Source: Patulibacter minatonensis DSM 18081 (GTDB lineage Bacteria; Actinomycetota; Thermoleophilia; Solirubrobacterales; Solirubrobacteraceae). From it: a DNA stretch of 64,000 nt. The stretch covers positions 1,713,252 to 1,777,251 of the forward strand of contig NZ_KI912613.1 in the NCBI RefSeq assembly GCF_000519325.1, given 5' to 3'. Positions 27,749 through 41,830 of this stretch are shown piece by piece. The notes below the pieces were generated by a model, which was not told the DNA's origin, did not search any database, and saw only the letters and a program-made list of their open reading frames with translations. Position numbers and translations under genes: made by a program. Numbering within the stretch: the stretch's first letter is position 1; each line of letters opens with the position of its first letter.

Positions 27749-30664
27749 TCACTTCTTCTTCGCGACCTTGCAGGCCGTCCCGATCCTCGTCGAGCGGGTC
27801 GGGGCCTTCTTGCCGCTCCAGCTGCCGAAGCGGGTGCTGGCCTTCGCCTTCGCGGTGCACAGGTCGCGGGTCGCGGCGATGATGCCGTGCTTGCCCCCGT
27901 CGATCGTGATCGCGAAGTTCTTGATCGGCTGGTCCGGGATCGACGGGAACGTCGTCACGAGCCGGTCGCGGCTGACCGAGGTCACGGCCCGCAGGTTGAC
28001 GCGCGCCTCGCCGTCCAGCGGGATGTAGAGCGTCGGCAGCGTCGGGACCTCCTTGCCCGCCGCCGTCCTCCGGGTGCCCTTGACGAAGTAGATCGGAGCG
28101 AACAGCTTCCGGTTCAGGATCGTCGTCTCGGCCGTGGCGGAGCCCACGATCGAGGTCTTCGGGCAGGCGTCCTTCGCGGCGTCGGCCTTCTCACACAGCG
28201 ACTGCGCGTTGCTGGCCTGCAGCGCGACCTGCTTCGGCAGCGCGACCTCGGCGGACTTGATGCCGGCCTCGCTCTCGAACTGCGTGACGGTCGCCTTGAC
28301 CTGCGGGTGGCCGCCCTTCTTCATCTGCGACCGGTTGCCGAACGCCAGGGCGATCTTCGGCCGGAACGGCAGGGTCTGGCAGCCGGAGAACGCGACCGGT
28401 GCGCTCGGGCTCGCGATGCCGCCGGCGATGCCGGTGAGCGTCGACGTGATGTTCGCCGTGCCGCAGGACGTCGGGTTGCGCAGGAAGTCCGCGCGGTTGA
28501 CGTCGAGCGTCAGGTTCCGCAGACGGAGGACGATGCCCTCCTTGATCTGCGGGAGCGGGTCGCTGTCGACGGTGACCTGGGCGGTCTTCGGATCGATGCG
28601 CAGCGCCTGGCGGACCACCACGTTGCCGAGGTCGTACGGACCGGCGACGGCGTGGATGATCGCGACGGAGCCGAAGGCGCCGCCCTTGTAGCCGTTCGTC
28701 AGGTAGGCGGAGCCGGTCAGCGCGTAGGGCGCGGAGCCGGGACCCGCCTGCACGCGGACGGTCGCGATCCTCGCGGCGTCGGGGCAGGACTCGGCGCCGA
28801 TCTGCGCCTCGGAGCACGGCGTGATGCCCTTGATCCGGGCGGTCATGCCGGCCGGCAGCGTCGCCTTCAGGCCGCTGAGGAACTGGTCGCCGTCAGGCCG
28901 GCCGAGCGTCACCGTGGCCGGCGCGTACTTCCCGGACTGCGGGGTCGCCAGCGCCGCCGTCAGCGACGGGCCGAACGGGTTGCCGCCGCAGGCGACGACG
29001 TCGACGCTCGAGCTCGTGGCCGACGCCGCGCCGCCCGACCAGGACGAGAGCGTGCCGGAGCCGGTCGCCGTGCCGCAGGCCTGTGGGCTCGCGATGATCG
29101 CCCTGGCGCCACCGTCGAAGTCGAGGCGGAACCGCGAGAACGGCAGCTGCGGGTTGTCGTCGAAGACCGCCGAGACCTGACCGGTGACCGGGTCGGGCGT
29201 GACCGTGCCCTTCAGGCGGATCGAGATGCCGTGCCCGTCCGCGTTCACGAACAGCCGGTAGCGGTTGCCGGAGAGCGGCTGGCCGACGTGGACCGAGCCG
29301 GTCAGCGGGGAGTCGAGCAGCGGGCTGGTGATCGAGGTGGCACCGATGCGGGACGCCGCCGGGCACGCGATCGCGTCCGTCGTGCCCTTGTGGAACTGGT
29401 CGTCGGTGCAGGCCTCGAGGCCGTTCGCCGCGGACGGGCTGATCGTCATGCCCGGGGGCAGCGTCACCGCGACGCGCTTGACGTCGGCCGTCCCGAGCGT
29501 GCCGGTGTCGGTCGACTGCGGCACGTCGAGCTGGACGCCGAGCGGCGTCGGCGCGTCGCGCTGCATCGAGCTGGCGTCGAACGTCGTCGTCGACGCGAAC
29601 GGCACCTGGTCGCAGCCCTGGAGGCCGTTCGTGGAGGCGCCGACGGCGAAGTCGGCCGTCTTGTGGTCGCCCTGGTAGGAGTCGAGCGTCAGCGTGGCCG
29701 TCGACGGGCCGGTGCAGGACGTCGGGCTGCGCAGGAACGCGGAGGTCGTGTCCGTGATGCCGGTCGCACCGGTCGCGGCCCGCGACGCGAGCGTGTACGG
29801 GAGCGGCAGCGGCGTCCCGGCCGGGTACGGCGGGCTGGGGAGCGTCGGCGTGGTGTCGGACTCCGCGAGGGCCAGCGTCGCGGCACCGCGCTCGCTGTTG
29901 TGGCTCGCGGCCCCCGGGGTGCCCCAGAACGTCAGGGTGGACCCGGTGAGCGTCGGCGTGGCCGGCGTCGTGGGGTTGGAGACGTTGCTGATGACGAAGT
30001 ACAGGCCGTTGTCGTCGGGCCGCATGTGGCCGACGATGTCGACGGGCTCCCCGGTCGCGCCCGGGGCCTGCTTCGGGTTGAACGAGAACCGCGCGAGCGG
30101 GGCGTCGGCGGTCGTCTCCATGTTGTAGAGGCCGACCTTCACCCGCAGCGTGCCCTTGCCGCCGGCCGGGATGCCGAACGGGCTGCCCGGGCCCGCCAGC
30201 GGCGTGCCGCCGGGCGGCGTCGTGGCGGCCGTCGGGAGGAAGGTCCGCAGGCGCAGGACGACGGTGCCGATCTGGGACGCCGGGGCGCAGGAGTTGGCCT
30301 CGAGGTCCGCCTCGGCGCACTTCGGCGTCGCCTGCGGGTTCGGGACCAGCCCGGGGGGCGTGTCGGTGCGGATCGTCGAGGTCGCCCCACCGTTCTCCTG
30401 CACGGGCAGGACCGCGGGGCTCGCGCTCTTGGTGACCTTCGTGTCGAAGGAGATGATCCCCTGGTAGGGGTGGCCGCCGGCCTGGGACTCGAACGTGGTC
30501 CCGTCGGCCTTGACGATGTTCGCCGAGAAGTTGTCGATCTCGTACGCCTGGGCGGCGCCGGCGGTGACGAGCGTGACCCCGAGCGCCGCTCCGGCGATCA
30601 GGGCCGCGCGGCGGCGTCGGGCGGGGCGTGAGCTTCGTGGCTGGGTGCTGCGGTGCGGATGCAC
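27749..30664 (-). CDS. Large secreted protein with four Cys-pair repeats
   Basis: This 971-residue protein has an Arg-rich start, a Sec signal peptide (about 1-40, cleavage near AQA-YE) and then an exported beta-rich body. Four Cys-pair motifs of the form C-x9-14-C-P/A-x2-S/A-x-I occur at Cys116/126, 419/434, 617/627 and 824/834. Each of the last three follows a conserved LPxGM or similar strand by 10-20 residues. Other repeated elements are LRxPTSC (about 312 and 729), C-x3-PF (351, 559, 762) and SWSG (541, 948). It is a surface or periplasm-like protein of unknown function. It is transcribed away from the MCE operon, behind a small protein with the same motif, which suggests a role with that transport system. 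Confidence 0.85.
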   Translation of the reverse strand: MHPHRSTQPRSSRPARRRRAALIAGAALGVTLVTAGAAQAYEIDNFSANIVKADGTTFESQAGGHPYQGIISFDTKVTKSASPAVLPVQENGGATSTIRTDTPPGLVPNPQATPKCAEADLEANSCAPASQIGTVVLRLRTFLPTAATTPPGGTPLAGPGSPFGIPAGGKGTLRVKVGLYNMETTADAPLARFSFNPKQAPGATGEPVDIVGHMRPDDNGLYFVISNVSNPTTPATPTLTGSTLTFWGTPGAASHNSERGAATLALAESDTTPTLPSPPYPAGTPLPLPYTLASRAATGATGITDTTSAFLRSPTSCTGPSTATLTLDSYQGDHKTADFAVGASTNGLQGCDQVPFASTTTFDASSMQRDAPTPLGVQLDVPQSTDTGTLGTADVKRVAVTLPPGMTISPSAANGLEACTDDQFHKGTTDAIACPAASRIGATSITSPLLDSPLTGSVHVGQPLSGNRYRLFVNADGHGISIRLKGTVTPDPVTGQVSAVFDDNPQLPFSRFRLDFDGGARAIIASPQACGTATGSGTLSSWSGGAASATSSSVDVVACGGNPFGPSLTAALATPQSGKYAPATVTLGRPDGDQFLSGLKATLPAGMTARIKGITPCSEAQIGAESCPDAARIATVRVQAGPGSAPYALTGSAYLTNGYKGGAFGSVAIIHAVAGPYDLGNVVVRQALRIDPKTAQVTVDSDPLPQIKEGIVLRLRNLTLDVNRADFLRNPTSCGTANITSTLTGIAGGIASPSAPVAFSGCQTLPFRPKIALAFGNRSQMKKGGHPQVKATVTQFESEAGIKSAEVALPKQVALQASNAQSLCEKADAAKDACPKTSIVGSATAETTILNRKLFAPIYFVKGTRRTAAGKEVPTLPTLYIPLDGEARVNLRAVTSVSRDRLVTTFPSIPDQPIKNFAITIDGGKHGIIAATRDLCTAKAKASTRFGSWSGKKAPTRSTRIGTACKVAKKK

Positions 30665-30699
30665 TCGGACTCCAATGGTTGAACGCGAGAACGTCGGGT

Positions 30700-30731
30700 C
30701 CGGGTCCGCCCGCGGACGCGGGCGGACCCGG
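30700..30731 (-). terminator. Terminator hairpin between the two secreted-protein genes
   Basis: CCGGGTCCGCCCGC (30700-30713) pairs perfectly with GCGGGCGGACCCGG (30718-30731) around loop GGAC. It follows the minus-strand stop at 30745 and precedes the next start at 30664. Confidence 0.7.
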
Positions 30732-30744
30732 GCTCAGGCGTCGG

Positions 30745-31467
30745 TCAGGACGTGCACTTCACGGTCGACGCGAACACGGCGTCCGCGGTGCTGTCCTGCG
30801 AGGAGATGACCTGGTAGGGCCACTTGCCGTTCTTCGGGCAGGACGTCGTGGCGAGCCAGTTCTTGGCGTTCGTCTTGACGTTCGCCGAGATCAGCGAGAT
30901 CGGGGTGCCGGCGACGACCTGCAGCTCCTGCGGGACGGTCAGCGTCAGGCGGTAGCCGCCGTACTTGCCGCCCTTCTTGACGACGCCGGGGACCGGCGAG
31001 TTCACGACCGCCGGGTTCGTCAGCTCGGTGTAGAGGAACATCTTGCTCGCGCCACCGTTGACGAGCGTGAACTTCGGCTTCGTCTTCGCGGTGTCGGCCC
31101 AGGCCAGGCCGGTGCCCTTGCCGACGATCGCCTTCGGGCAGACCTCCTTCGGCAGGCCCTGGTTGAGCTTCGCCTCGGTGCAGGACGGGTACTTCCCGCC
31201 GAGGTAGAGCGAGCCCTTCGGGAAGTCGATGACGAGCTTCTGCACGATCGGCTTGTCCGAGCCGTCCGGGCCGGCGGTCTTCCAGTTGATGTTGATGCCG
31301 AGGTTCACGGACCGCGGCTTGGCCTTGGTGCCCGCCTTCGTCGGCGAGACGCTCGGCTTCACCGTGATCGTGGTCTTGGCGTCCGGCGTCTGGGCGTAGG
31401 ACGGCGCGACGGCGGCGATGGACATGGTCGCGGTCAGTGCGACGGCGGAGACGGCGATTCTGCGCAT
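30745..31467 (-). CDS. Small secreted protein sharing the Cys-pair motif
   Basis: This 240-residue protein has a signal peptide (cleavage near YAQ-TP, about 26) and a mature beta-rich domain. Cys96 and Cys110 lie in CTEAKLNQGLPKEVCPKAIV, the same pattern as in the neighbouring 971-residue protein, with a second pair Cys210/Cys238. FPKGSLYLGG precedes the first pair, as LPPGM does in the larger protein. Together the two appear to be a family of exported proteins. The ATG 31467 follows a GGAGG ribosome site. Function is unknown. Confidence 0.85.
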   Translation of the reverse strand: MRRIAVSAVALTATMSIAAVAPSYAQTPDAKTTITVKPSVSPTKAGTKAKPRSVNLGININWKTAGPDGSDKPIVQKLVIDFPKGSLYLGGKYPSCTEAKLNQGLPKEVCPKAIVGKGTGLAWADTAKTKPKFTLVNGGASKMFLYTELTNPAVVNSPVPGVVKKGGKYGGYRLTLTVPQELQVVAGTPISLISANVKTNAKNWLATTSCPKNGKWPYQVISSQDSTADAVFASTVKCTS

Positions 31468-32007: not shown

Positions 32008-33393
32008 TTGACCGCCATCCCGACTCCTGAACCACGCGAGAAGCGCCGGACGCGCACGCTCGTGAGCGCCTCGATCGTCGCCGTCGCGCTCCTCGTCGGT
32101 TGCGTGTATGGCGTCCTCGGGCGCGATTCGGGGCAGCGTTATCGCCTCGTCTTCGAGAGCTCGAGCCAGGTCGTGAAGGGCGGGACGGTGCGGATCGGCG
32201 GGACCCAGGTCGGGACCGTGAAGTCGATCGACCTGACGAAGGACGACCGCGCCGCCGTCGAGATCTCGGTCTCCGGCGACTTCGCGCCGCTCCGGCGCGG
32301 CGCCACCGCTGTCGTGCGCGCCCAGGGCACCGCCGGCGTCGCCAGCCGGTACGTCGACATCAGCCCCGGATCGGGCCTCGAGCCCGCGCTCGCCGACGGC
32401 GCCACGATCCCCGTCGACCACACCACCTCGCAGGTCGAGCTCGACCAGCTCTTCGCGTCCGTCGACGGGCGGACCCGGTCGGGCCTGCGCCGCACGATCC
32501 GCGGCTTCTCCGAGTGGTACGCGGGCCGGGAGGCCGAGGGTGGCAAGGCCGCGCGGCGCCTGCCGAAGGGCATGGCCGCCCTGCGCACGTTCGCCGCCGA
32601 GGTCGACGCCCAGACCGCGCAGTTCGCCCGCCTGATCGGCACGAGCAGCAGGACGATGAGCACGCTCGCGGGCGAGCAGGCGTCGCTGACCCGTCTCGTC
32701 GGCGGGGCGGCGTCGACCGTCGACGCGCTCGGCGCCGACACCGGCGCGCTGACCGGCGTCCTGCGGGACACCCCGGCGATGCTGCGCCAGGGCACCGCGG
32801 CGCTCGCGAGCCTGCGCGGCACGCTGCCCGACCTGCGCCGCCTGCTGGACGCCTCCGACACGCCGTCGAAGCGCCTGCCGCGCGCCCTCGACGATCTCCG
32901 TCCCGTGCTGACCCGCGCGACCCCGGTCGTCGGGCAGCTGCGGCGCGTCGTCGACCTCCCGGGCGCCGGCAACGACCTGCTCGACGGCCTGCGCGACCTG
33001 CCCGCCGTCGACCGCTCCGCGAGGACCGCCTTCCCGGCGAGCGTCCGGGCCCTCGCCGGCACCACGCCGATCCTCTCCTACGCCCGGCCGTACACGCCGG
33101 ACCTCGTCTCGTGGCTCGGCTCGTTCGGGCGCGCCGCGGCGGCCTACGACGCCGACGGTCACTACCTCACCGCGATGCCGACGTTCGACGCCTACCGCAC
33201 GCGGGAGGACGACCAGGGCGGCACGCTCGTCCCCAAGGCCCCGGCCGAGCGTGGCACCGACGCGGCGCTCAGCACCGGCCACACCAAGCGCTGCCCGGGC
33301 ACCGCCGCGGGGACGCTCCCCGACGGCTCGGGGGCCTTCGTCGACCGCGGCGCGCTCGCGAACGCCGACTGCGACGCGGGGGAGGGGCGCTGA
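32008..33393 (+). CDS. MCE-family substrate-binding protein (first of six)
   Basis: This 461-residue MCE protein probably forms part of a lipid-transport hexamer spanning the envelope. An N-terminal TM segment (about 18-33) ends in LLVGC, a possible lipobox. The MCE domain follows at about 43-120 (VRIGGTQVGTVKSIDL), then a long helical tail with alternating Thr/Leu-rich repeats and a Cys-containing C-terminus. TTG 32008 is the start given; a GTG at 32062 would give a shorter signal. Its stop overlaps the next start by one base. No YrbE permease or ATPase precedes it, which is unusual for mce operons. Confidence 0.88.
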   Translation: MTAIPTPEPREKRRTRTLVSASIVAVALLVGCVYGVLGRDSGQRYRLVFESSSQVVKGGTVRIGGTQVGTVKSIDLTKDDRAAVEISVSGDFAPLRRGATAVVRAQGTAGVASRYVDISPGSGLEPALADGATIPVDHTTSQVELDQLFASVDGRTRSGLRRTIRGFSEWYAGREAEGGKAARRLPKGMAALRTFAAEVDAQTAQFARLIGTSSRTMSTLAGEQASLTRLVGGAASTVDALGADTGALTGVLRDTPAMLRQGTAALASLRGTLPDLRRLLDASDTPSKRLPRALDDLRPVLTRATPVVGQLRRVVDLPGAGNDLLDGLRDLPAVDRSARTAFPASVRALAGTTPILSYARPYTPDLVSWLGSFGRAAAAYDADGHYLTAMPTFDAYRTREDDQGGTLVPKAPAERGTDAALSTGHTKRCPGTAAGTLPDGSGAFVDRGALANADCDAGEGR

Positions 33394-34670
33394 TGCGCGC
33401 ACGTCTCGGCCTCGTCGCCGTCCTCCTCGCCGTGGTCGCCGGCGTCGTGCTCGTCGGCGTCGGGCGCAGCAACGACGCCCGGGGTGCCGACGGACGCGGC
33501 GACCACTACCTCGTCCGCGCGATCTTCTCGAACGCCAGCTTCGTGATCCGCGGCGAGGACGTGAAGGTCGCCGGCGTGATCGCCGGGAAGATCGAGCGGG
33601 TCGAGCTGACCCCGGACAACCGCGCGGCGGTCGTCATCGACATCACCGACCGGGCGTACCAGGACTTCCGGGCCGACGCCACGTGCAGGATCGGCCTCCA
33701 GTCGCTGATCGGCGAGCAGTACGTCGAGTGCACGCCGACCCAGCGCCGCGGCGAGGGCGTCGTGCCCGCCGCCCCGCTGCAGGTCGTCGCCTCCGGCCCC
33801 GGGCGCGGTCAGCGCCTGCTGCCCGTCGAGCGGACCTCGAGCCCCGTCGGCCCGGACCTGCTCGCGAACATCATGCGCGTGCCGCAGCGCGAGCGGTTGC
33901 GGCTGATCATCGGCGAGCTCGGCGTCGGCCTGGCCGGCGGCGGCACCGAGCTGCGCGCCGCGATCGAGCGGGCCGACCCGACGCTGCAGCAGGCCGACCG
34001 CCTCGTCGAGATCCTCGCGACCCAGAACCGGACGATCGCCGGTCTCGTGCAGAAGTCCGACGCCGCGCTGCAGCCGCTGGCCGCCCGCCGCGGGGACCTC
34101 TCGGGCTTCACCTCGGCCTCCGCGCGCGTCGGCGCCGCGGCCGCCGAGCGGGGCGACGCCCTAGAGCAGGACCTCGGGAAGCTGCCCGGGTTCCTGGCGG
34201 AGCTGCGCCCCGCGGCCGGCCGCATCGGCGCGCTCGCGGACCAGGCCCGCCCGGCGGTCGACGCGCTGTCGGCCCGGGCTCCCCAGCTGAACACCGCCGT
34301 CACCCGCCTGGGCCCGTTCGCGTCCGCCGGCACCGGCGCGCTGACGTCGCTCGGCCGCGTCGCCGACCAGGGCCGCGCCACGTTCCCGAAGCTCGACCGC
34401 CTCGCCGCGCAGCTGAAGAGCACCGGGTCCACCGTCGTCCCCGTCGCGTCGCAGCTCGCCGACGTCGGCGGCTCGTTCGACCGCACCGGCGGCATCACGA
34501 ACCTGCTGCGGACGCTGCACTTCTACACCGGGGCGTTGAACGGCAAGGACGGCACGTCGCACTACCAGCGCACGACCGCCTACCTCAGCCTCTGCATCGA
34601 GCGCCGGCCGGTCCAGGTGGGCCAGTGCGTCGCGCAGTTCCAGAAGGACGCGACGGGGGCGACGCCATGA
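33393..34670 (+). CDS. MCE-family protein (second)
   Basis: This 425-residue protein has an N-terminal membrane anchor (about 3-22), an MCE domain at about 39-112 (GEDVKVAGVIAGKIERVEL) and a long coiled-coil-prone tail to about 370. Near the C-terminus is HFYTGALNGKDGTSHYQR, with Cys residues in LCIERRPVQVGQC. The ATG overlaps the previous stop (TGATG). Sequence differs from the other five, as in MceA-F sets where each subunit is distinct. It would be anchored in the membrane with the MCE ring outside. Confidence 0.87.
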   Translation: MRARLGLVAVLLAVVAGVVLVGVGRSNDARGADGRGDHYLVRAIFSNASFVIRGEDVKVAGVIAGKIERVELTPDNRAAVVIDITDRAYQDFRADATCRIGLQSLIGEQYVECTPTQRRGEGVVPAAPLQVVASGPGRGQRLLPVERTSSPVGPDLLANIMRVPQRERLRLIIGELGVGLAGGGTELRAAIERADPTLQQADRLVEILATQNRTIAGLVQKSDAALQPLAARRGDLSGFTSASARVGAAAAERGDALEQDLGKLPGFLAELRPAAGRIGALADQARPAVDALSARAPQLNTAVTRLGPFASAGTGALTSLGRVADQGRATFPKLDRLAAQLKSTGSTVVPVASQLADVGGSFDRTGGITNLLRTLHFYTGALNGKDGTSHYQRTTAYLSLCIERRPVQVGQCVAQFQKDATGATP

Positions 34671-36121
34671 GCACCGGTGGACCGCGCCGCCGCGGCTCCC
34701 TCGCCGCGACCCCGGGCCTGATCGGCGCCGTGACGGTGCTGATCGCGATCGTCGGGGTCGTCCTGGCCTACAACGCGGGCAAGGGCGTCCCGTTCGTGAA
34801 GACGTACGTCATCCGCGCGGAGGTCCCGGACGCGTCGGGCCTGCTCGTCGGCAACGACGTGCGGAAGGGCGGAAGCCGCATCGGCTTCGTCTCCGACGTG
34901 ATCGCCCGGCCCGGCACCGACGGCACCGACGGCGCGACGCTCGTCCTGAAGCTCGACGAGTCCGCCCGGCCGCTCCCCGCCGACAGCCGCGTCGAGGTCC
35001 GGCCGCGCTCGGTCCTCGGCCTGAAGTACGTGCAGCTCACCGCCGGGCGCTCGAGGACGATGCTCGCCGACCGGCAGACCATCGACCTGCGCTACGCGGG
35101 CGGGAAGCCGGTCGAGCTCGACGACCTCTTCAACACGTTCGACGCCCCGACCCGGCGCGGTGCGTCCGACAACCTCCTGATCGCGGGCACCGCGCTCGCC
35201 GGACGGGGCGCCGGGATCAACCGCGCCGTCGTCGGCCTGAACCCGCTGCTGGAGCACGCCGAGCCCGCGCTCCGGACGCTCGCCGACCCCGGGACCGCGC
35301 TGTCCCGCTTCTTCCCCGCGCTCGAGCGGACGGCCGCCGAGGTCGCACCCGTCGCGACGCAGCAGGCCGGGCTGGTGACGGGCCTGCGGCGGACGCTCGG
35401 CGGTCTGAGCACCGTCCGCCCGTCGATCCAGGACGCGATCTCCGCCGGCCCCGCCGCGCTCGACGCCGGGACCCGGGAGCTGCCGCGGCAGGCCGCGTTC
35501 CTGGCCGCGTCCACCGAGCTGTTCCGTCGCCTGCAGCCCGGCCTCCGGTCGCTGTCGCACGCCGCGCCCGGCCTCGCGACCGCCTTCCGGGCCGGCACGC
35601 CCGCGCTCCGCCGCGCGCCCGCGCTGAACCGCCGGGCGGTCCCGGCGCTCCGCGGCCTGCAGGCGTTCGGCACCGACGACGACGCCCTCCAGGGCTTCGC
35701 GCAGCTCGGCGCGACCGCGACCGCGATCGGGCCCGCCGTCGCGTACGTCGGTCCCGCGCAGACGCGGTGCAACTACCTCACCCTGCTGACGCGGAACCTT
35801 GCGAGCGTGCTGTCGGAGTCCGACACCGTCGGCAGCGCCCTGCGGACCGGCCTCCTGATCACGCCGATCGCGCCGAACGGCGAGGCCGGACCCGCCGCGA
35901 CGCCCGCGGACGGTCCCGCGCAGAACCTGAAGGCGACCCCGCCGAAGCAGCCCTCCGACAGCCTGCTGCACAGCAACACGTACCCCTACACCGCGTCGCC
36001 GGGCCAGCCCGCCGAGTGCGAGGCCGGGAACGAGCGCTACGTCCCCGGGAAGCAGATGATCGGGAACACCCCGGCGAACGAGGGCCTCATCACCGAGGGC
36101 CAGAAGGTGGGCGCGAAGTGA
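34667..36121 (+). CDS. MCE-family protein (third)
   Basis: This 484-residue protein has a TM anchor at about 18-38 and an MCE domain at about 50-125 (VRKGGSRIGFVSDVIA). The tail is helical, with heptad-like Leu/Ala repeats (LEHAEPALRTLADP, LPRQAAFLAAST), and the Pro-rich C-terminus is probably extracytoplasmic. The start overlaps the previous stop (ATGA). The Cys-bearing CNYLTLLTRN near 370 is typical of one MCE subunit type. Partner of the five other subunits in one complex; cargo unknown. Confidence 0.87.
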   Translation: MSTGGPRRRGSLAATPGLIGAVTVLIAIVGVVLAYNAGKGVPFVKTYVIRAEVPDASGLLVGNDVRKGGSRIGFVSDVIARPGTDGTDGATLVLKLDESARPLPADSRVEVRPRSVLGLKYVQLTAGRSRTMLADRQTIDLRYAGGKPVELDDLFNTFDAPTRRGASDNLLIAGTALAGRGAGINRAVVGLNPLLEHAEPALRTLADPGTALSRFFPALERTAAEVAPVATQQAGLVTGLRRTLGGLSTVRPSIQDAISAGPAALDAGTRELPRQAAFLAASTELFRRLQPGLRSLSHAAPGLATAFRAGTPALRRAPALNRRAVPALRGLQAFGTDDDALQGFAQLGATATAIGPAVAYVGPAQTRCNYLTLLTRNLASVLSESDTVGSALRTGLLITPIAPNGEAGPAATPADGPAQNLKATPPKQPSDSLLHSNTYPYTASPGQPAECEAGNERYVPGKQMIGNTPANEGLITEGQKVGAK

Positions 36122-37674
36122 TCCGCCGGTCCAAGCGCCGCGTCGTCCCCGGCGGCGGCCGCCAGGCCCGGATCGGGCCGGTGAAGACCGGCATCCTCGT
36201 GCTGCTCGTCGTCGCCATCGGCTGCTTCTTCGCGTTCACGAAGAGCGTGCCGTTCAAGCACCACTACGAGATCACGGCCGTCGTCCGGACCTCGAACCTG
36301 CTGGCGAAGGGCTCGCCCGTCCGCATCGCCGGGGTCCCGGTCGGGACGGTCGTCGGCTCCGGCCGCCACGGCGACGGCCAGGACGCCGAGATCCGCCTGC
36401 GCATCGACGGCGACGGACGCCGGACGCTGCGCCGCGACGCGTCGCTCCGGATCCGCCCCCGCCTGTTCCTCGAGGGCAACTTCTACGTCGACCTCCAGCC
36501 CGGCAGCCCCGACGCGCCCGCGATGCCCGACGGTGGCGTCATCCCCGTGACCCGCACCGCGGTCCCGGTCCAGCTCGACCAGGTGCTCGCCGCCCTGCCG
36601 GCCGACACCCGCGGCGGACTGCGCGAGACGGTGCACGGCCTCGGCGACGCGCTCGGGTCGTTCCCGAAGGCCGCGGACCGCACCGGGCAGGATCCCGCGG
36701 TCGCCGCGCTCCCCGGCGGCCGGGCGCTGAACCGCACCCTCGCGACCTCGCCGAAGGCCCTGCAGGACAGCGCCGCCGTCCTCACCGCGCTCCGGGGCCG
36801 GAAGACCGGCGACCTCTCCCGGGCGATCGACGGCCTCGGCGCCACCACCGACGCGCTGGGCGAGGACCAGGCCGCGCTGCGCGGCGCCGTCCGCGACTTC
36901 GCGACCACGGTCACCGCGACGGGCGACGCGGGCGCGTCGCTCCGCGCGTCCGTGGCCGCGCTCGCCCGCACCTCGGCGACCGGCCGGACCGCCTTCGCCG
37001 CACTCGACCGCGCGATGCCCGCGACCCGGACGGCCGCGTCCGACCTGACCGCCGCGATGCGCGAGACGCCGGCCACGATCGACGCGTCGCTGCCGTGGCT
37101 CGCCCAGGCGCGCCCGCTGCTCGGGCAGGCCGAGCTCCGCGGACTGCTGGACGACGTCCGCCCGACGCTGACCAGCTCCTCGCGCCTCGTCCACACCGCC
37201 CGGAGGTGGTTCCCGCGGACCGGCGCGCTCGCCGCGTGCGCGAACCGCGTCCTGCTGCCGACCGCGATGGTGAAGCTCGACGACGGCGCGCTGTCGACGG
37301 ACACCGAGAACTACAAGGAGTTCTTCTCGTCCGTCGTCGGGCTCGCCGGCGCGGCGCAGACGTTCGACGGCAACGGCACCAAGCTGCGCCTGCAGACGAT
37401 CGGCGGCGCCACCCGGATCAAGTCCGGGGCGACGAACTACAGCCGCGCGTCCGGCGGTCTGCCGCAGTTCGCGAACCTGACGCAGCCGTCGGTCGGCACC
37501 AGCCCCGCGTTCTCGCCCGTGCTGCCGCCCGTCCGCACCGACGTGCCGTGCGCGAGGAACGGCGTGCCGGCGCTCAACGGTCCCGCGTCGCAGGGGCCCG
37601 CCGACGGGTCCGCGCCGAGCGCGCCGGCCACCCCGGTCCCGAACCTGCAACCCGTCCCCGGGAGCGACCGATGA
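36118..37674 (+). CDS. MCE-family protein (fourth)
   Basis: This 518-residue protein has a basic N-terminus, a TM segment at about 23-42 (VKTGILVLLVVAIGCFF) and an MCE domain at about 50-135 (SPVRIAGVPVGTVVGS). A GHGDGQD insertion between MCE strands (HGDGQDAEIRL) makes it slightly longer. The tail is a long helix with repeated AxxLR elements. GTG 36118-36120 overlaps the previous stop codon (GTGA). The C-terminal 40 residues are Pro/Ala/Gly-rich. Confidence 0.87.
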   Translation: MIRRSKRRVVPGGGRQARIGPVKTGILVLLVVAIGCFFAFTKSVPFKHHYEITAVVRTSNLLAKGSPVRIAGVPVGTVVGSGRHGDGQDAEIRLRIDGDGRRTLRRDASLRIRPRLFLEGNFYVDLQPGSPDAPAMPDGGVIPVTRTAVPVQLDQVLAALPADTRGGLRETVHGLGDALGSFPKAADRTGQDPAVAALPGGRALNRTLATSPKALQDSAAVLTALRGRKTGDLSRAIDGLGATTDALGEDQAALRGAVRDFATTVTATGDAGASLRASVAALARTSATGRTAFAALDRAMPATRTAASDLTAAMRETPATIDASLPWLAQARPLLGQAELRGLLDDVRPTLTSSSRLVHTARRWFPRTGALAACANRVLLPTAMVKLDDGALSTDTENYKEFFSSVVGLAGAAQTFDGNGTKLRLQTIGGATRIKSGATNYSRASGGLPQFANLTQPSVGTSPAFSPVLPPVRTDVPCARNGVPALNGPASQGPADGSAPSAPATPVPNLQPVPGSDR

Positions 37675-39035
37675 GGCGCTGGCGCGGCCAGGCCCGCAGG
37701 CTCCTGACGATCGCGGCGCTCGCCGCCGTCGGGCTGCTCGTCGCCGGGGCGATCCTCGGCGGCCAGAAGGCGTCGCTCCCGGGCTGGGTGCCGGGCGCGC
37801 CGGACGATCCGTTCGTGATCGACGCGCGCTTCGCGTCCGCCGCCGGCGTCATGCCCGGCCAGGGGCAGGCCGTCACGATCGCCGGCGTGTCCGTCGGCAA
37901 GGTCGGCGGCGTGCGCCTGGACCGCGGGCAGGCCGTCGTCCGGCTCGACCTCGAGCGCAGGTACGCCGGCCGGGTCCGCCCCGACGCGCACGTGCTGCTG
38001 CGCCCGAAGACGCCGCTGAAGGACATGATCGTCGAGCTCGACCCGGGCACCGCCCAGTCGGGGGCGCCGCTGAAGGACGGGGCGGAGCTCTCCGTCGCCG
38101 CGGGGGCCCCGGACGTCGGCGGGGACGAGATCCTGGCGATGCTCGACACCGACACGCGCGCCGCGCTGGGCTCGCTGCTCGGCAACGCCGGCACCGCGAT
38201 CGGGGGCGACGGCGGCCGCCGGCTGGCGCGCGCACTGAAGCGCTTCGAGCCGCTCTCCCGCCGCACCGCCGAGGCCAGCAGGCTCCTCGCCGCGCGCGGC
38301 ACGATGACCCGCCGGCTGATCACGAACCTCGGCTCGATCACGCAGGAGCTCGGCGGCACCGACGCCCGTCTGACCGCGTTCGTGCGCGACAACGCGGCGC
38401 TCTTCGCCCGCTTCGCCCGGCAGGACCGCGGCCTGTCGAACACGGTCCGCGCGCTGCCGGCGACGCTCGACGCGAGCACCAGCGCGCTCCAGAAGGTCGG
38501 CGACCTGTCCGCCACGCTGGACCGGGCGCTGCCCGCGGTCCGCCCGGCGACGTCCGGACTCGCCCCCGCCCTGCGGCAGGTCCGCCCGTTCCTCGCGAAG
38601 ACGCGCCCGGCGCTCGAGCACCAGCTCCGCCCGTTCGCCCGCAAGGCCCAGCCGGTCGCGGCGCGCCTGCGGCCCGGCGTCGCGCAGGCCGCGAGCGGGG
38701 CGTCGAGCCTCGAGCGCCTGACCACCACGCTGAACCACCTGACGGACGCGCTCGCGTACGACCCGCCGGGCGACGGCGTCGGGAAGCAGAGCTACCTGTT
38801 CTCCCTGCCGTGGGCCGGGCACAACACGAACTCCGTCGTCTCCACCCAGGACGCCCTCGGGCCGCTGCCGCGCTCGATCACGCTCTTCAGCTGCGGCGCT
38901 CAGGTGCTGCTCGACAACTACACGAACCCCAAGGGCGTCTCCGACAGCCCCTACATCAAGACGCTGATCGACCTCCTGAACCCGCCGCGGACCGCGGACA
39001 ACTGCCCCAAGGGCATCAGCACCAAGAGCAAATGA
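37671..39035 (+). CDS. MCE-family protein (fifth)
   Basis: This 454-residue protein has a TM anchor at about 10-30 and an MCE domain at about 50-120 (AVTIAGVSVGKVGGVRL), followed by a helical tail. The C-terminal region carries SYLFSLPWAGHNTNSVVS, then a Cys in FSCGAQVLLDN and a Cys near the end. The ATG overlaps the previous stop. It has no lipobox at its N-terminus, although the fifth gene is the usual lipoprotein position in mycobacterial mce operons. Confidence 0.86.
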   Translation: MRRWRGQARRLLTIAALAAVGLLVAGAILGGQKASLPGWVPGAPDDPFVIDARFASAAGVMPGQGQAVTIAGVSVGKVGGVRLDRGQAVVRLDLERRYAGRVRPDAHVLLRPKTPLKDMIVELDPGTAQSGAPLKDGAELSVAAGAPDVGGDEILAMLDTDTRAALGSLLGNAGTAIGGDGGRRLARALKRFEPLSRRTAEASRLLAARGTMTRRLITNLGSITQELGGTDARLTAFVRDNAALFARFARQDRGLSNTVRALPATLDASTSALQKVGDLSATLDRALPAVRPATSGLAPALRQVRPFLAKTRPALEHQLRPFARKAQPVAARLRPGVAQAASGASSLERLTTTLNHLTDALAYDPPGDGVGKQSYLFSLPWAGHNTNSVVSTQDALGPLPRSITLFSCGAQVLLDNYTNPKGVSDSPYIKTLIDLLNPPRTADNCPKGISTKSK

Positions 39036-40513
39036 TCAAGCAGGCGCCCACCCTCCCCAAGCTGCTCGTGATGATCGCGTTCGCGCTCTGCAGCTTCGGG
39101 GCCCTCCTCTTCCTCTGGGTGTCGTTCGGCGGCGGCGTGCCCGGCCGCGCGCAGGGCTACCGCTTCGGCGTCGACATCCCGCAGGCGGCGCAGCTCACGC
39201 GCCAGGCGGACGTCCGGATCTCCGGCGTCAACGTCGGCAAGGTCGTCGCGCTCACGCCGCAGCGGAACACCACGACGCGGGTGACGATCCAGCTGGACGC
39301 GAAGTACGCGCCGATCCCGCGCGCCGCCACGGCGACGCTGCGCGCCAAGACGCTGCTCGGCGAGACCTACGTCGAGCTCGCGCCGCACCGCGACGCCGGG
39401 ACCGGGCCGCTCCCCGAGGGCGGCACGCTCGCCGCCGACGCCGCGCGGCCGACCGTCGAGCTCGACGACGTCCTGAAGGCGTTCGATCCGAGGACCCGTG
39501 CCGCGTTCCGCACGTGGCAGGAGACGCAGGCGCGGTCCCTCGAGGGCCGCGGGGCCGACCTGAACGCCGCGTTCGGCGAGCTGCCGCTGCTCGTCGAGGA
39601 GGTCGACCACCTCGCCGCCACGCTCGACGCCCAGGGCTCCGCGGTCAAGCAGGCCGTGTCCGGCACCGCGACGGTGTTCGACGCGATCAGCCGCCGCCGC
39701 GGCGACCTGCGGCGGCTCGTGACCTCGGGCGACCGCGCGTTCGCCGCGATCGGCGAGCGCAACCGCGCGCTGGCCGCGATCTTCCGCGCGCTGCCGGCGT
39801 TCGAGCGCGAGGCCACGGCCACCCTCCCGGCCGTCACCGCGCTCGGCGACCGCGGGCTCCCCGTCGTCCGGCGCCTGCAGCCCGTCGCCACCCGCCTGGC
39901 GCCGACCCTCGACGCGGCCGACCGCCTGAGCCCGGACCTCGCCGCGCTGATGACCCGTCTGGGCCCGGTCGTGACGGCGTCGCAGCAGGGGCTCCCGGCG
40001 TTCGTCCGGACGCTCGACCGCCTGCCGTCGCTCCTCACCGCGCTGACGCCGCCGACCCGCACGATCAACCCGGCCCTGCGCCAGCTGAGCGTCGGGAAGC
40101 GGGAGCTGACGTCGTTCCTCGGCAACGTCACCGCCGCGACGAACGCCCGCGACCGCGGCACCGGTGCCCGCTACGTCCGCGCCGCCGTGAACTACAGCCC
40201 GCAGGGCCTGGCGTTCCAGTCGCGGCTCCTCGGCCAGACCCGCCGCAACGCCTACCCGGCCCCGGGCTCCGGCGGCTCGCTCCTGTCGGGCCTGTCGGTC
40301 CTGGGCTCCTGCGCGACGGGCGACCCGGCGTCGCCCACGGACGTCGAGGCCCCGGTCCTCGAGCGCCTCCTGACGAACGTCTTCCAGACCACCACCCGCG
40401 ACGTCGCCCGACCGGGCTGCCGGGCGCAGGGCGCGTTCCCGGGCTTCTCCACGGCGTTCCCGCAGCTCGGCGCCGACCCGGCGGCGGCGCTGGCGGCGGG
40501 CGCGCGGCGCTGA
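39032..40513 (+). CDS. MCE-family protein (sixth)
   Basis: This 493-residue protein has a TM anchor at about 10-33, an MCE domain at about 43-118 (VRISGVNVGKVVALTPQ), a helical tail to about 370, and a C-terminal segment with paired Cys (SCATG and GCRAQ). The start overlaps the previous stop (ATGA). It ends the operon, followed after 68 bases by a large hairpin. The six overlapping genes give one polycistronic mRNA and would build a heterohexameric channel. The energising YrbE/ATPase genes must be elsewhere. Confidence 0.87.
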   Translation: MIKQAPTLPKLLVMIAFALCSFGALLFLWVSFGGGVPGRAQGYRFGVDIPQAAQLTRQADVRISGVNVGKVVALTPQRNTTTRVTIQLDAKYAPIPRAATATLRAKTLLGETYVELAPHRDAGTGPLPEGGTLAADAARPTVELDDVLKAFDPRTRAAFRTWQETQARSLEGRGADLNAAFGELPLLVEEVDHLAATLDAQGSAVKQAVSGTATVFDAISRRRGDLRRLVTSGDRAFAAIGERNRALAAIFRALPAFEREATATLPAVTALGDRGLPVVRRLQPVATRLAPTLDAADRLSPDLAALMTRLGPVVTASQQGLPAFVRTLDRLPSLLTALTPPTRTINPALRQLSVGKRELTSFLGNVTAATNARDRGTGARYVRAAVNYSPQGLAFQSRLLGQTRRNAYPAPGSGGSLLSGLSVLGSCATGDPASPTDVEAPVLERLLTNVFQTTTRDVARPGCRAQGAFPGFSTAFPQLGADPAAALAAGARR

Positions 40514-40656: not shown

Positions 40657-40980
40657 TCAGCGACGCTCGGCGGTGAACTTCAGCACGCCGGAGTCGCACG
40701 TGTGGACGCCGGACTCGTTGGAGTACTGCGACGTGCGGCGGACGACGCCGGTGGCCGTGCGGCCCTTGACCGTGATCCGCACGTCGGTGTAGCCGTCCGG
40801 CTCCTTCGAGCCGCCGTACTCGTACCGGCGGAAGTGCAGCCTGCCGCTCTTCGACAGGCGCAGCCCGGTCGTGAAGCCCGGGTCCGTCGTGGGGGAGTCG
40901 TTGCCGATCTTCCCGCCGCCCTCGCACGGGAGGTCGCGGTGCGCGTCGGTCGCGGCCCGGCACGGGCGTGCGCGGTGGCC
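40657..40980 (-). pseudogene. C-terminal part of a secreted-type protein, start missing or broken
   Basis: The minus-strand frame encodes an intact C-terminal domain with Cys in LPCEGGGKIGND and HTCDSGVLKFTA and ends in a stop at 40657. That layout, an about 100-residue strand-rich domain ending CxSGxxxFTAxR, is common in small exported proteins of Thermoleophilia (recalled pattern). No in-frame ATG or GTG lies between the domain and a run of 11 G residues (41009-41019), and the upstream frame looks non-coding. The signal peptide may have been lost by slippage at the G run, or the gene may be a decayed fragment. Limits are approximate. Confidence 0.45.
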
Positions 40981-41008
40981 CGGCGCCTGCCCGCGCGGCC
41001 GGCCGGTT

Positions 41009-41019
41009 GGGGGGGGGGG
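41009..41019. repeat. Homopolymer run of 11 G
   Basis: An uninterrupted 11-base G tract lies between the broken minus-strand secreted-type ORF and the sigma-factor start at 41267. It is prone to slippage or sequencing error and could change a reading frame on the minus strand. Confidence 0.8.
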
Positions 41020-41266
41020 CGTGTGCGGACCGTGCGTTCGCGCCGGGGTGTCCGAGGGAAGAGGAGGCGGAACGGTCCTCCGCCACCAGCTCGCCGGTCG
41101 GACCGGTCCGACCGCGATGTCGTCCCGCCCCGACCCTCGACCAGACCCCCGCGGCCCCGGAGCGGCGCAGGACACCACGGCGCCCGACCCCGTGCGCTCG
41201 CCGGCGACGCCGGCAGCGGCCGACCACACCGGTCACAGGATCGGCCCCGAGATCGACGTAGGGGTG

Positions 41267-41830
41267 ATGAGCATCCTGCGAGATCCCCCCGACGCCCGGC
41301 TGCTCCACGCAGCGCGGGAGGGAGACTCCGACGCGTTCGGGGTCTTCTATCTGCGACACCGCGACCCGCTGACCCGCTTCTGCGCGCGGCGGGTCGGCAC
41401 GCCCGAGGCGGTCGCCGACCTCGTGGCCGAGACGTTCGCCACCGCCCTGGAGGTCCTGCACGGGCCGCGGCCACCGAAGATCGACGACGCCGCCGGCTGG
41501 CTGTTCGGCATGGCGCGCAACAAGATCGCCGACACCTACCGGCGCGGCGCGGTCGACGACCGCGCCCGGCAGCGGATCGGCATGGAGCGCCTGGACCTGC
41601 AGCCCGACGAGGCCGAGCGGATCCTGGACCTCGCCGAGCCCGGCGACGCCGTCCGCGTCGCGGCCGGGCTGCCCGAGGACCAGCGCCGCGCGATCTACGG
41701 CCGGATCGTCGCCCAGGACACCTACGAGGAGCTCTCCGCCGAGCTCGGGGTGCCGGAGAGCACCGTCCGCAAGCGCGTCAGTCGCGCCCTCACCACCATC
41801 AAGACCCGTCTGACGGAGACCCACGCATGA
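41267..41830 (+). CDS. ECF-type RNA polymerase sigma factor
   Basis: This 187-residue sigma factor of the extracytoplasmic-function type has region 2 at about 15-85 (DPLTRFCARRVGTPEAVADLVAETFATA, WLFGMARNKIADTYRR) and region 4 at about 120-185 (LPEDQRRAIYGRIVAQDTYEELSAELGVPESTVRKRVSRAL). ATG 41267 is preceded by GTAGGGG. Its stop overlaps the next gene's start (ATGA), coupling it to a membrane-anchored partner that may be its anti-sigma factor. Targets are unknown. Confidence 0.88.
   Translation: MSILRDPPDARLLHAAREGDSDAFGVFYLRHRDPLTRFCARRVGTPEAVADLVAETFATALEVLHGPRPPKIDDAAGWLFGMARNKIADTYRRGAVDDRARQRIGMERLDLQPDEAERILDLAEPGDAVRVAAGLPEDQRRAIYGRIVAQDTYEELSAELGVPESTVRKRVSRALTTIKTRLTETHA

What the first reader, a model, noticed from the sequence alone, without database searches (positions are those of the whole stretch)
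27749..31467. Two exported proteins sharing a Cys-pair motif, divergent from the MCE operon
The 971-residue protein has four copies of C-x(9-14)-C-P-x-(S/A)-x-I-like motifs, each followed by strand-rich sequence, and the 240-residue neighbour has one (C96/C110). The repeat suggests a modular domain with a disulfide, not described to my knowledge. The linkage to an MCE operon that lacks its permease suggests cell-surface lipid handling, possibly binding or shuttling cargo.
Basis: partly seen in the sequence, partly recalled or inferred. Interest (0 to 1): 0.65.

Follow-up and report, generated by a model that had tools for sequence, protein, structure and literature searches.

The report
Secreted partner of permease-less MCE operons
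Two exported proteins in a Patulibacter genome are built from the same undescribed disulfide-stapled domain; the small single-domain one is a conserved neighbour, sometimes the seventh operon gene, of an MCE lipid-transport operon that lacks its own permease, so it is probably a lineage-specific accessory of that transporter, while the big four-domain one is beside it only in this genome.

Summary
Protein A (971 aa) has four homologous modules of about 205 aa and B (240 aa) has one. No Pfam, NCBIfam or PDB sequence family matches. AlphaFold2 gives B as a confident beta-sandwich (pLDDT 89), Ig-like by structural alignment. The module family was found only in one actinobacterial order (Solirubrobacterales by named hits); it includes four-module proteins and open frames up to 7,223 aa.

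The mce link is real for B but not for A. B-type genes sit beside a six-gene, YrbE-less mce operon in 27 genomes of at least seven genera. In five they follow mceF on the same strand, in three of them within 15-35 nt. The B-linked operons fall in one MCE clade. A's Patulibacter orthologues sit in a different neighbourhood without mce.

The missing permease is probably supplied in trans: three genomes have a stand-alone YrbE-YrbE-ATPase locus, and this genome has that orthogroup beside another mce operon. Some B-type genes instead adjoin MMPL lipid transporters.

Best reading: B is an extracytoplasmic accessory of an MCE lipid transporter; A is an expanded, exported paralogue. The biochemical role is inferred. 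New variant of a known kind.

The parts
30745..31467 (-). gene B: 240-aa exported single-module protein (signal-peptide-like residues 1-25, module about residues 34-240; C96/C110 and C210/C238)
   Evidence: AlphaFold2 model pLDDT 88.7, pTM 0.82; orthologues beside mce in all 8 Patulibacter genomes examined
27749..30664 (-). gene A: 971-aa exported four-module protein, pI 9.3, Lys tail, no TM segment seen in the tail
   Evidence: orthologues 57-70% identical in six other Patulibacter genomes, not beside mce
29627..30433 (-). module A1 (longest, with insertion; C116/C126, C317/C351)
   Evidence: profile hit 95 bits; A1/A3 BLAST E 2e-6
28985..29626 (-). module A2 (C419/C434, C530/C559)
   Evidence: profile hit 224 bits; model pLDDT 68.7
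28379..28996 (-). module A3 (C617/C627, C734/C762)
   Evidence: profile hit 184 bits
27770..28390 (-). module A4 (C824/C834, C936/C965)
   Evidence: profile hit 164 bits
31468..32007 (.). 540-bp intergenic region between the divergent B gene and the first mce gene
   Evidence: gene calls
32008..40513 (+). six-gene mce operon (32008-33393, 33393-34670, 34667-36121, 36118-37674, 37671-39035, 39032-40513), no yrbE
   Evidence: PF02470 hits, no PF02405 hit near, gene calls
30702..30729 (-). perfect 28-bp inverted repeat (13-bp arms) between B and A; may separate their transcripts

Best explanation
B is a secreted beta-sandwich protein, stapled by two disulfides, that serves as an extracytoplasmic accessory subunit of one clade of MCE lipid transporters in Solirubrobacterales. 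The six MCE proteins encoded next to it would form the envelope-spanning hexameric tube known from mycobacterial Mce1. Because the operon has no permease, the tube would dock on a YrbE-YrbE-ATPase core encoded elsewhere. B would act at the exposed part of the tube, capping it, stabilising it or handing lipid over. A is a four-module paralogue of the same family, exported and basic, probably held at the cell surface or wall; its place beside B and mce is specific to this genome. Shown: the module homology, the Cys pattern, the predicted fold of B, the order-wide B/mce linkage and operon structure, the absence of yrbE at the locus, and its presence in trans. Inferred: the disulfides themselves, contact of B with MCE, use of the trans permease, lipid as cargo, and the location of A.
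For: B-type genes adjoin a YrbE-less mce operon in 27 genomes of at least seven genera in two families, with no YrbE in any fetched span. In five genomes B lies downstream of mceF on the same strand; the gap is 15 nt (G176), 25 nt (G285), and in G015 either an ATGA overlap or 35 nt with a good ribosome site. In five complete genomes I counted 31 six-gene clusters: B is beside 5 of 12 YrbE-less and 0 of 19 YrbE-bearing ones (Fisher p about 0.005, my arithmetic; these genomes were chosen for having the linkage). All 25 B-linked operons in the concatenated MCE tree fall in one clade of 27 (support 0.99). B model pLDDT 88.7; best structural neighbours are Ig-like sandwiches, Z 7-8.6. Cys counts are nearly always even (91 with four, 17 with six, four intact proteins with two), and the third and fourth Cys are lost together, as expected for two disulfides. 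Trans permease: stand-alone YrbE-YrbE-ATPase loci without MCE in G015, G117, G176, in a slow-evolving orthogroup that in this genome sits with an ATPase beside another mce operon. Some B-type genes adjoin MMPL genes. A shared ATPase in trans is established for mycobacterial MCE systems (PMC9947336).
Against: No experiment or structure shows that B touches MCE proteins or lipid. Many B-type paralogues and nearly all A-type proteins lie away from mce, so the domain as such is not MCE-specific. Genomes with B-type genes but no linkage seen exist (for example G209, G268, G307 as sampled). Conserved neighbourhood can reflect co-regulation only. The MMPL neighbourhoods are few in independent lineages, and each genome has roughly 5-18 MMPL genes (two matches per gene).
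Confidence: 0.55

Rival explanations
1. The modules are structural: disulfide-stapled Ig-like repeats of a cell-wall or surface layer, adhesin or fibre. B is a co-regulated envelope protein that is kept beside mce for that reason only.
For: Multi-module forms, from four modules to open frames of up to 7,223 aa with long runs of them, look like adhesin or fibre proteins; structural neighbours include Gram-positive pilins and adhesins and BslA/YweA; A-type tails are basic with no membrane anchor and mature B has pI 9.8.
Against: Does not explain why single-module B is kept beside one MCE clade across at least seven genera and follows mceF in five genomes.
Confidence: 0.25
2. B-type proteins are soluble lipid carriers or chaperones that serve several envelope lipid transporters, MCE and MMPL alike, with A as a multivalent version.
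For: In genus g40 an MMPL gene lies between B and three further B-type genes at the mce locus; elsewhere B-type genes directly adjoin MMPL genes (L138, L141, L191, L193).
Against: Few independent MMPL cases; no lipid-binding evidence; no coordinates to look for a lipid pocket.
Confidence: 0.15
3. The linkage is a relic: the operon is degenerate after losing yrbE, and B has no role in it.
For: No yrbE at the locus.
Against: Six MCE frames are intact and in the same order in the linked genomes where the whole operon was fetched (g15 has its first two swapped); YrbE-less clusters are common (6 of 15 in G015) and keep six genes.
Confidence: 0.05

Closest known systems
Mycobacterial Mce1/Mce4 transporters (YrbEAB, MceABCDEF, shared MceG)
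   Same: Six consecutive, distinct MCE genes; part of the transporter encoded in trans.
   Different: Here the permease too is missing from the operon and would be supplied in trans; B matches no Pfam or NCBIfam model and has no counterpart that I know among LucA, LucB or the Mas/Mam proteins.
LucB (accessory of Mce1)
   Same: Accessory of a heterohexameric MCE transporter.
   Different: LucB is a small membrane protein encoded elsewhere (PMC9882608); B is an exported soluble protein encoded at the operon.
E. coli PqiABC / LetAB
   Same: MCE systems that do not use a neighbouring MlaE permease (from general knowledge; PqiABC in PMC10897342, listed).
   Different: There a PqiA/LetA-type membrane protein takes that place; no such gene was recognised in the neighbours scanned.
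YcnI (DUF1775) and other Ig-like beta-sandwiches
   Same: Best structural neighbours of the B model, Z 8.6 over 115 residues.
   Different: About 10% identity, no Pfam match, and Z in the range the tool calls a common arrangement.

Membership tests
Actinobacterial mce operon / MCE lipid transporter | six consecutive MCE-domain genes | tested here: met
   PF02470 hits and gene calls 32008-40513
Actinobacterial mce operon / MCE lipid transporter | two yrbE permease genes at the head of the operon | tested here: not met
   No PF02405 match near; the YrbE genes belong to other clusters; none in the 26 other B-linked spans
Actinobacterial mce operon / MCE lipid transporter | YrbE and ATPase available elsewhere in the genome | tested here: met
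   YrbE pair and an ABC-ATPase frame beside another mce operon of this genome; stand-alone loci in G015, G117, G176
Actinobacterial mce operon / MCE lipid transporter | lipid transport activity | not testable with these tools
   needs uptake assays
Known mce-associated proteins (Mas/Mam, LucA, LucB) | sequence match of B to a curated family | tested here: not met
   No Pfam or NCBIfam match to A or B
Known mce-associated proteins (Mas/Mam, LucA, LucB) | membrane-anchored topology | tested here: inconclusive
   B shows a signal-peptide-like N-terminus ending SYA-Q; cleavage not shown
YcnI / DUF1775 | match to its Pfam family | tested here: not met
   No Pfam match at E up to 10
YcnI / DUF1775 | fold | tested here: inconclusive
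   Z 8.6, rmsd 2.6 over 115 residues, common-arrangement range
Gram-positive pilin/adhesin (CnaB-type) domains | intramolecular isopeptide bond and sortase anchor | tested here: inconclusive
   No anchor segment in A-type tails; isopeptide residues could not be examined without coordinates

The most novel reading that the evidence does not exclude
Solirubrobacterales run several interchangeable MCE tubes on one shared YrbE-YrbE-ATPase core, and a secreted disulfide-stapled beta-sandwich protein is a true subunit of one class of these tubes, giving it its specificity at the distal end; an expanded multi-module version works at the cell surface.
Probability: 0.25. Interest if true: 0.75.

Novelty: new variant of a known kind. 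Interest (0 to 1): 0.55.

Why it matters
MCE systems are studied almost only in mycobacteria and Gram-negatives. An MCE operon that lacks its permease but keeps six MCE genes and has a conserved secreted partner across an order separates tube from motor, and gives a testable case of a shared permease core. It would also give a first functional handle on a large undescribed domain family that includes very long open frames.

Tried and rejected
A as the mce-linked partner: rejected, since its orthologues lie elsewhere. B replacing the permease: rejected, as B is an exported soluble protein. Known domain: Pfam, NCBIfam and PDB sequence searches gave nothing convincing; the 7q21 (Cgl2664/cg2949) hit, E 0.008, lies on the signal-peptide end of an alignment with untrimmed N-termini and was set aside. 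Foldseek gave no PDB match at E <= 0.001 in its tally and only weak viral matches. The A2-module model was too weak to use (pLDDT 68.7). A viral-contig scan gave nothing. Literature searches found no account of MCE systems in this order. This genome's stray YrbE pair (L216) proved to be a recent copy of another cluster's pair, so it was not counted as the trans permease. No fusion of the module with an MCE domain was found among the open frames.

Full report
Observation. Both exported proteins exist as described and are the preferred coding frames on either strand. A contains four modules; B contains one. Each module has two Cys pairs, not one. Pairwise BLAST does not join B to A, but an A-only profile reaches B and its relatives and profile comparison agrees. 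Later bit scores of B against the iterated profile include B-type sequences and are not independent evidence.

Domain. No member of the two alignments has a convincing Pfam match (one of 24 B-type members hits DUF1842 at 8e-4), and there is no convincing PDB sequence match. AlphaFold2 on 17 sequences gives B at pLDDT 88.7. VIA-align lists Ig-like sandwiches (YcnI Z 8.6, pilins, adhesins, BslA) at Z 6.5-8.6, a range the tool itself calls a common arrangement. Among about 115 single-module open frames, cysteines are nearly always even, with coordinated loss of the third and fourth in four intact frames. A few of those frames are fragments, and related genomes are not independent.

Distribution. 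B-type matches were found in 72 of 299 class genomes, all those listed being of the same order, and A-type matches in 5 of 396 phylum genomes, again all in the order. The search scored only the best 8-10 candidates per genome, so absence elsewhere is a sampling statement. Named hits place the window in or near Patulibacter. A-type proteins range from two modules to open frames of several thousand residues.

Linkage. The table of B-type loci with flanks gives 27 genomes with a B-type gene beside a YrbE-less mce operon: eight Patulibacter (two on short contigs), three of g9 plus one named Conexibacter sp., six of g40/g41, four of g34/g36 and five of g15. B is divergent from the first mce gene, downstream of the last, convergent in G258, or in g15 ahead of rearranged genes. 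The downstream cases are the strongest evidence for a shared function, though G117 and G248 have longer gaps (about 150 and 60 nt by the candidate starts). In Patulibacter and two g9 genomes plus the named Conexibacter all MCE proteins tested match this operon best; in the other lineages the match to the window operon and to its paralogues is about equal, but the concatenated tree groups all B-linked operons in a clade with two YrbE-bearing ones. Nodes inside that clade that would place those two exactly have little support.

A. Orthologues at 57-70% identity in six other Patulibacter genomes have no MCE gene in the fetched spans. Five share neighbours with each other (a fatty-acid desaturase and a ferredoxin-reductase-like protein among them) that differ from those in the window. 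A-type genes of other kinds lie near B and mce in Patulibacter HTM.34 and in four g15 genomes; this may be meaningful or chance.

Permease. This genome has seven six-gene mce clusters; two lack YrbE. G015 has fifteen, six without. Stand-alone YrbE-YrbE-ATPase loci occur in G015, G117 and G176 and group with the YrbE pair of one YrbE-bearing cluster of this genome (G000:C1:5318426-5328911) in both YrbE subtrees, with moderate support; that cluster also has an ABC-ATPase frame. That these serve the YrbE-less operons is inference by analogy with the shared MceG ATPase of mycobacteria.

Other context. Upstream of A lie acyl-CoA and flavin-monooxygenase genes, and an ECF sigma gene follows the operon. 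In g40 an MMPL gene lies between B and three more B-type genes. A transglycosylase/M23 protein lies at the operon in g15 and just past it in three or four Patulibacter genomes, not in the window. These suggest envelope lipid transport and wall remodelling, but were noticed rather than tested against a full background.

Verdict. Its mce link is real and order-wide, but it belongs to the small protein B. The most likely role is an extracytoplasmic accessory of an MCE lipid transporter whose permease is encoded in trans; the neighbourhood evidence is strong and the biochemical step is inferred.

Noticed in passing
window 30702-30729: Perfect 28-bp inverted repeat between B and A (fold z -3.5 for the surrounding 101 nt), possibly ending or splitting the transcript.
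   Followed up: partly
L026-L029 (genomes G030, G033, G027, G036): Open frames of about 4,600-7,200 codons carrying many copies of the module; not annotated further.
   Followed up: no
L161:3391-6726, L162:10798-14172, L163:6268-9603, L187:2402-5773, L159:801-4166: MMPL transporter gene between B and further B-type genes at the mce locus of genus g40.
   Followed up: partly
L154:5681-7948; ends of L198, L199, L202; L099, L101: Transglycosylase plus M23 peptidase protein at or just past the B-linked mce operon in g15 and Patulibacter, and near non-mce B paralogues.
   Followed up: partly
L176 (G000:C1:2460000-2479900): Second YrbE-less six-gene mce cluster of this genome, with no B-type gene.
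   Followed up: yes
L211, L216, L217: Near-identical copies (95-99%) of a yrbE stretch at three places of this genome, one at the contig end.
   Followed up: partly
window 40871-41830: ECF sigma factor gene directly after the mce operon.
   Followed up: no
L241, L242, L243: Stand-alone YrbE-YrbE-ATPase loci without MCE genes.
   Followed up: yes
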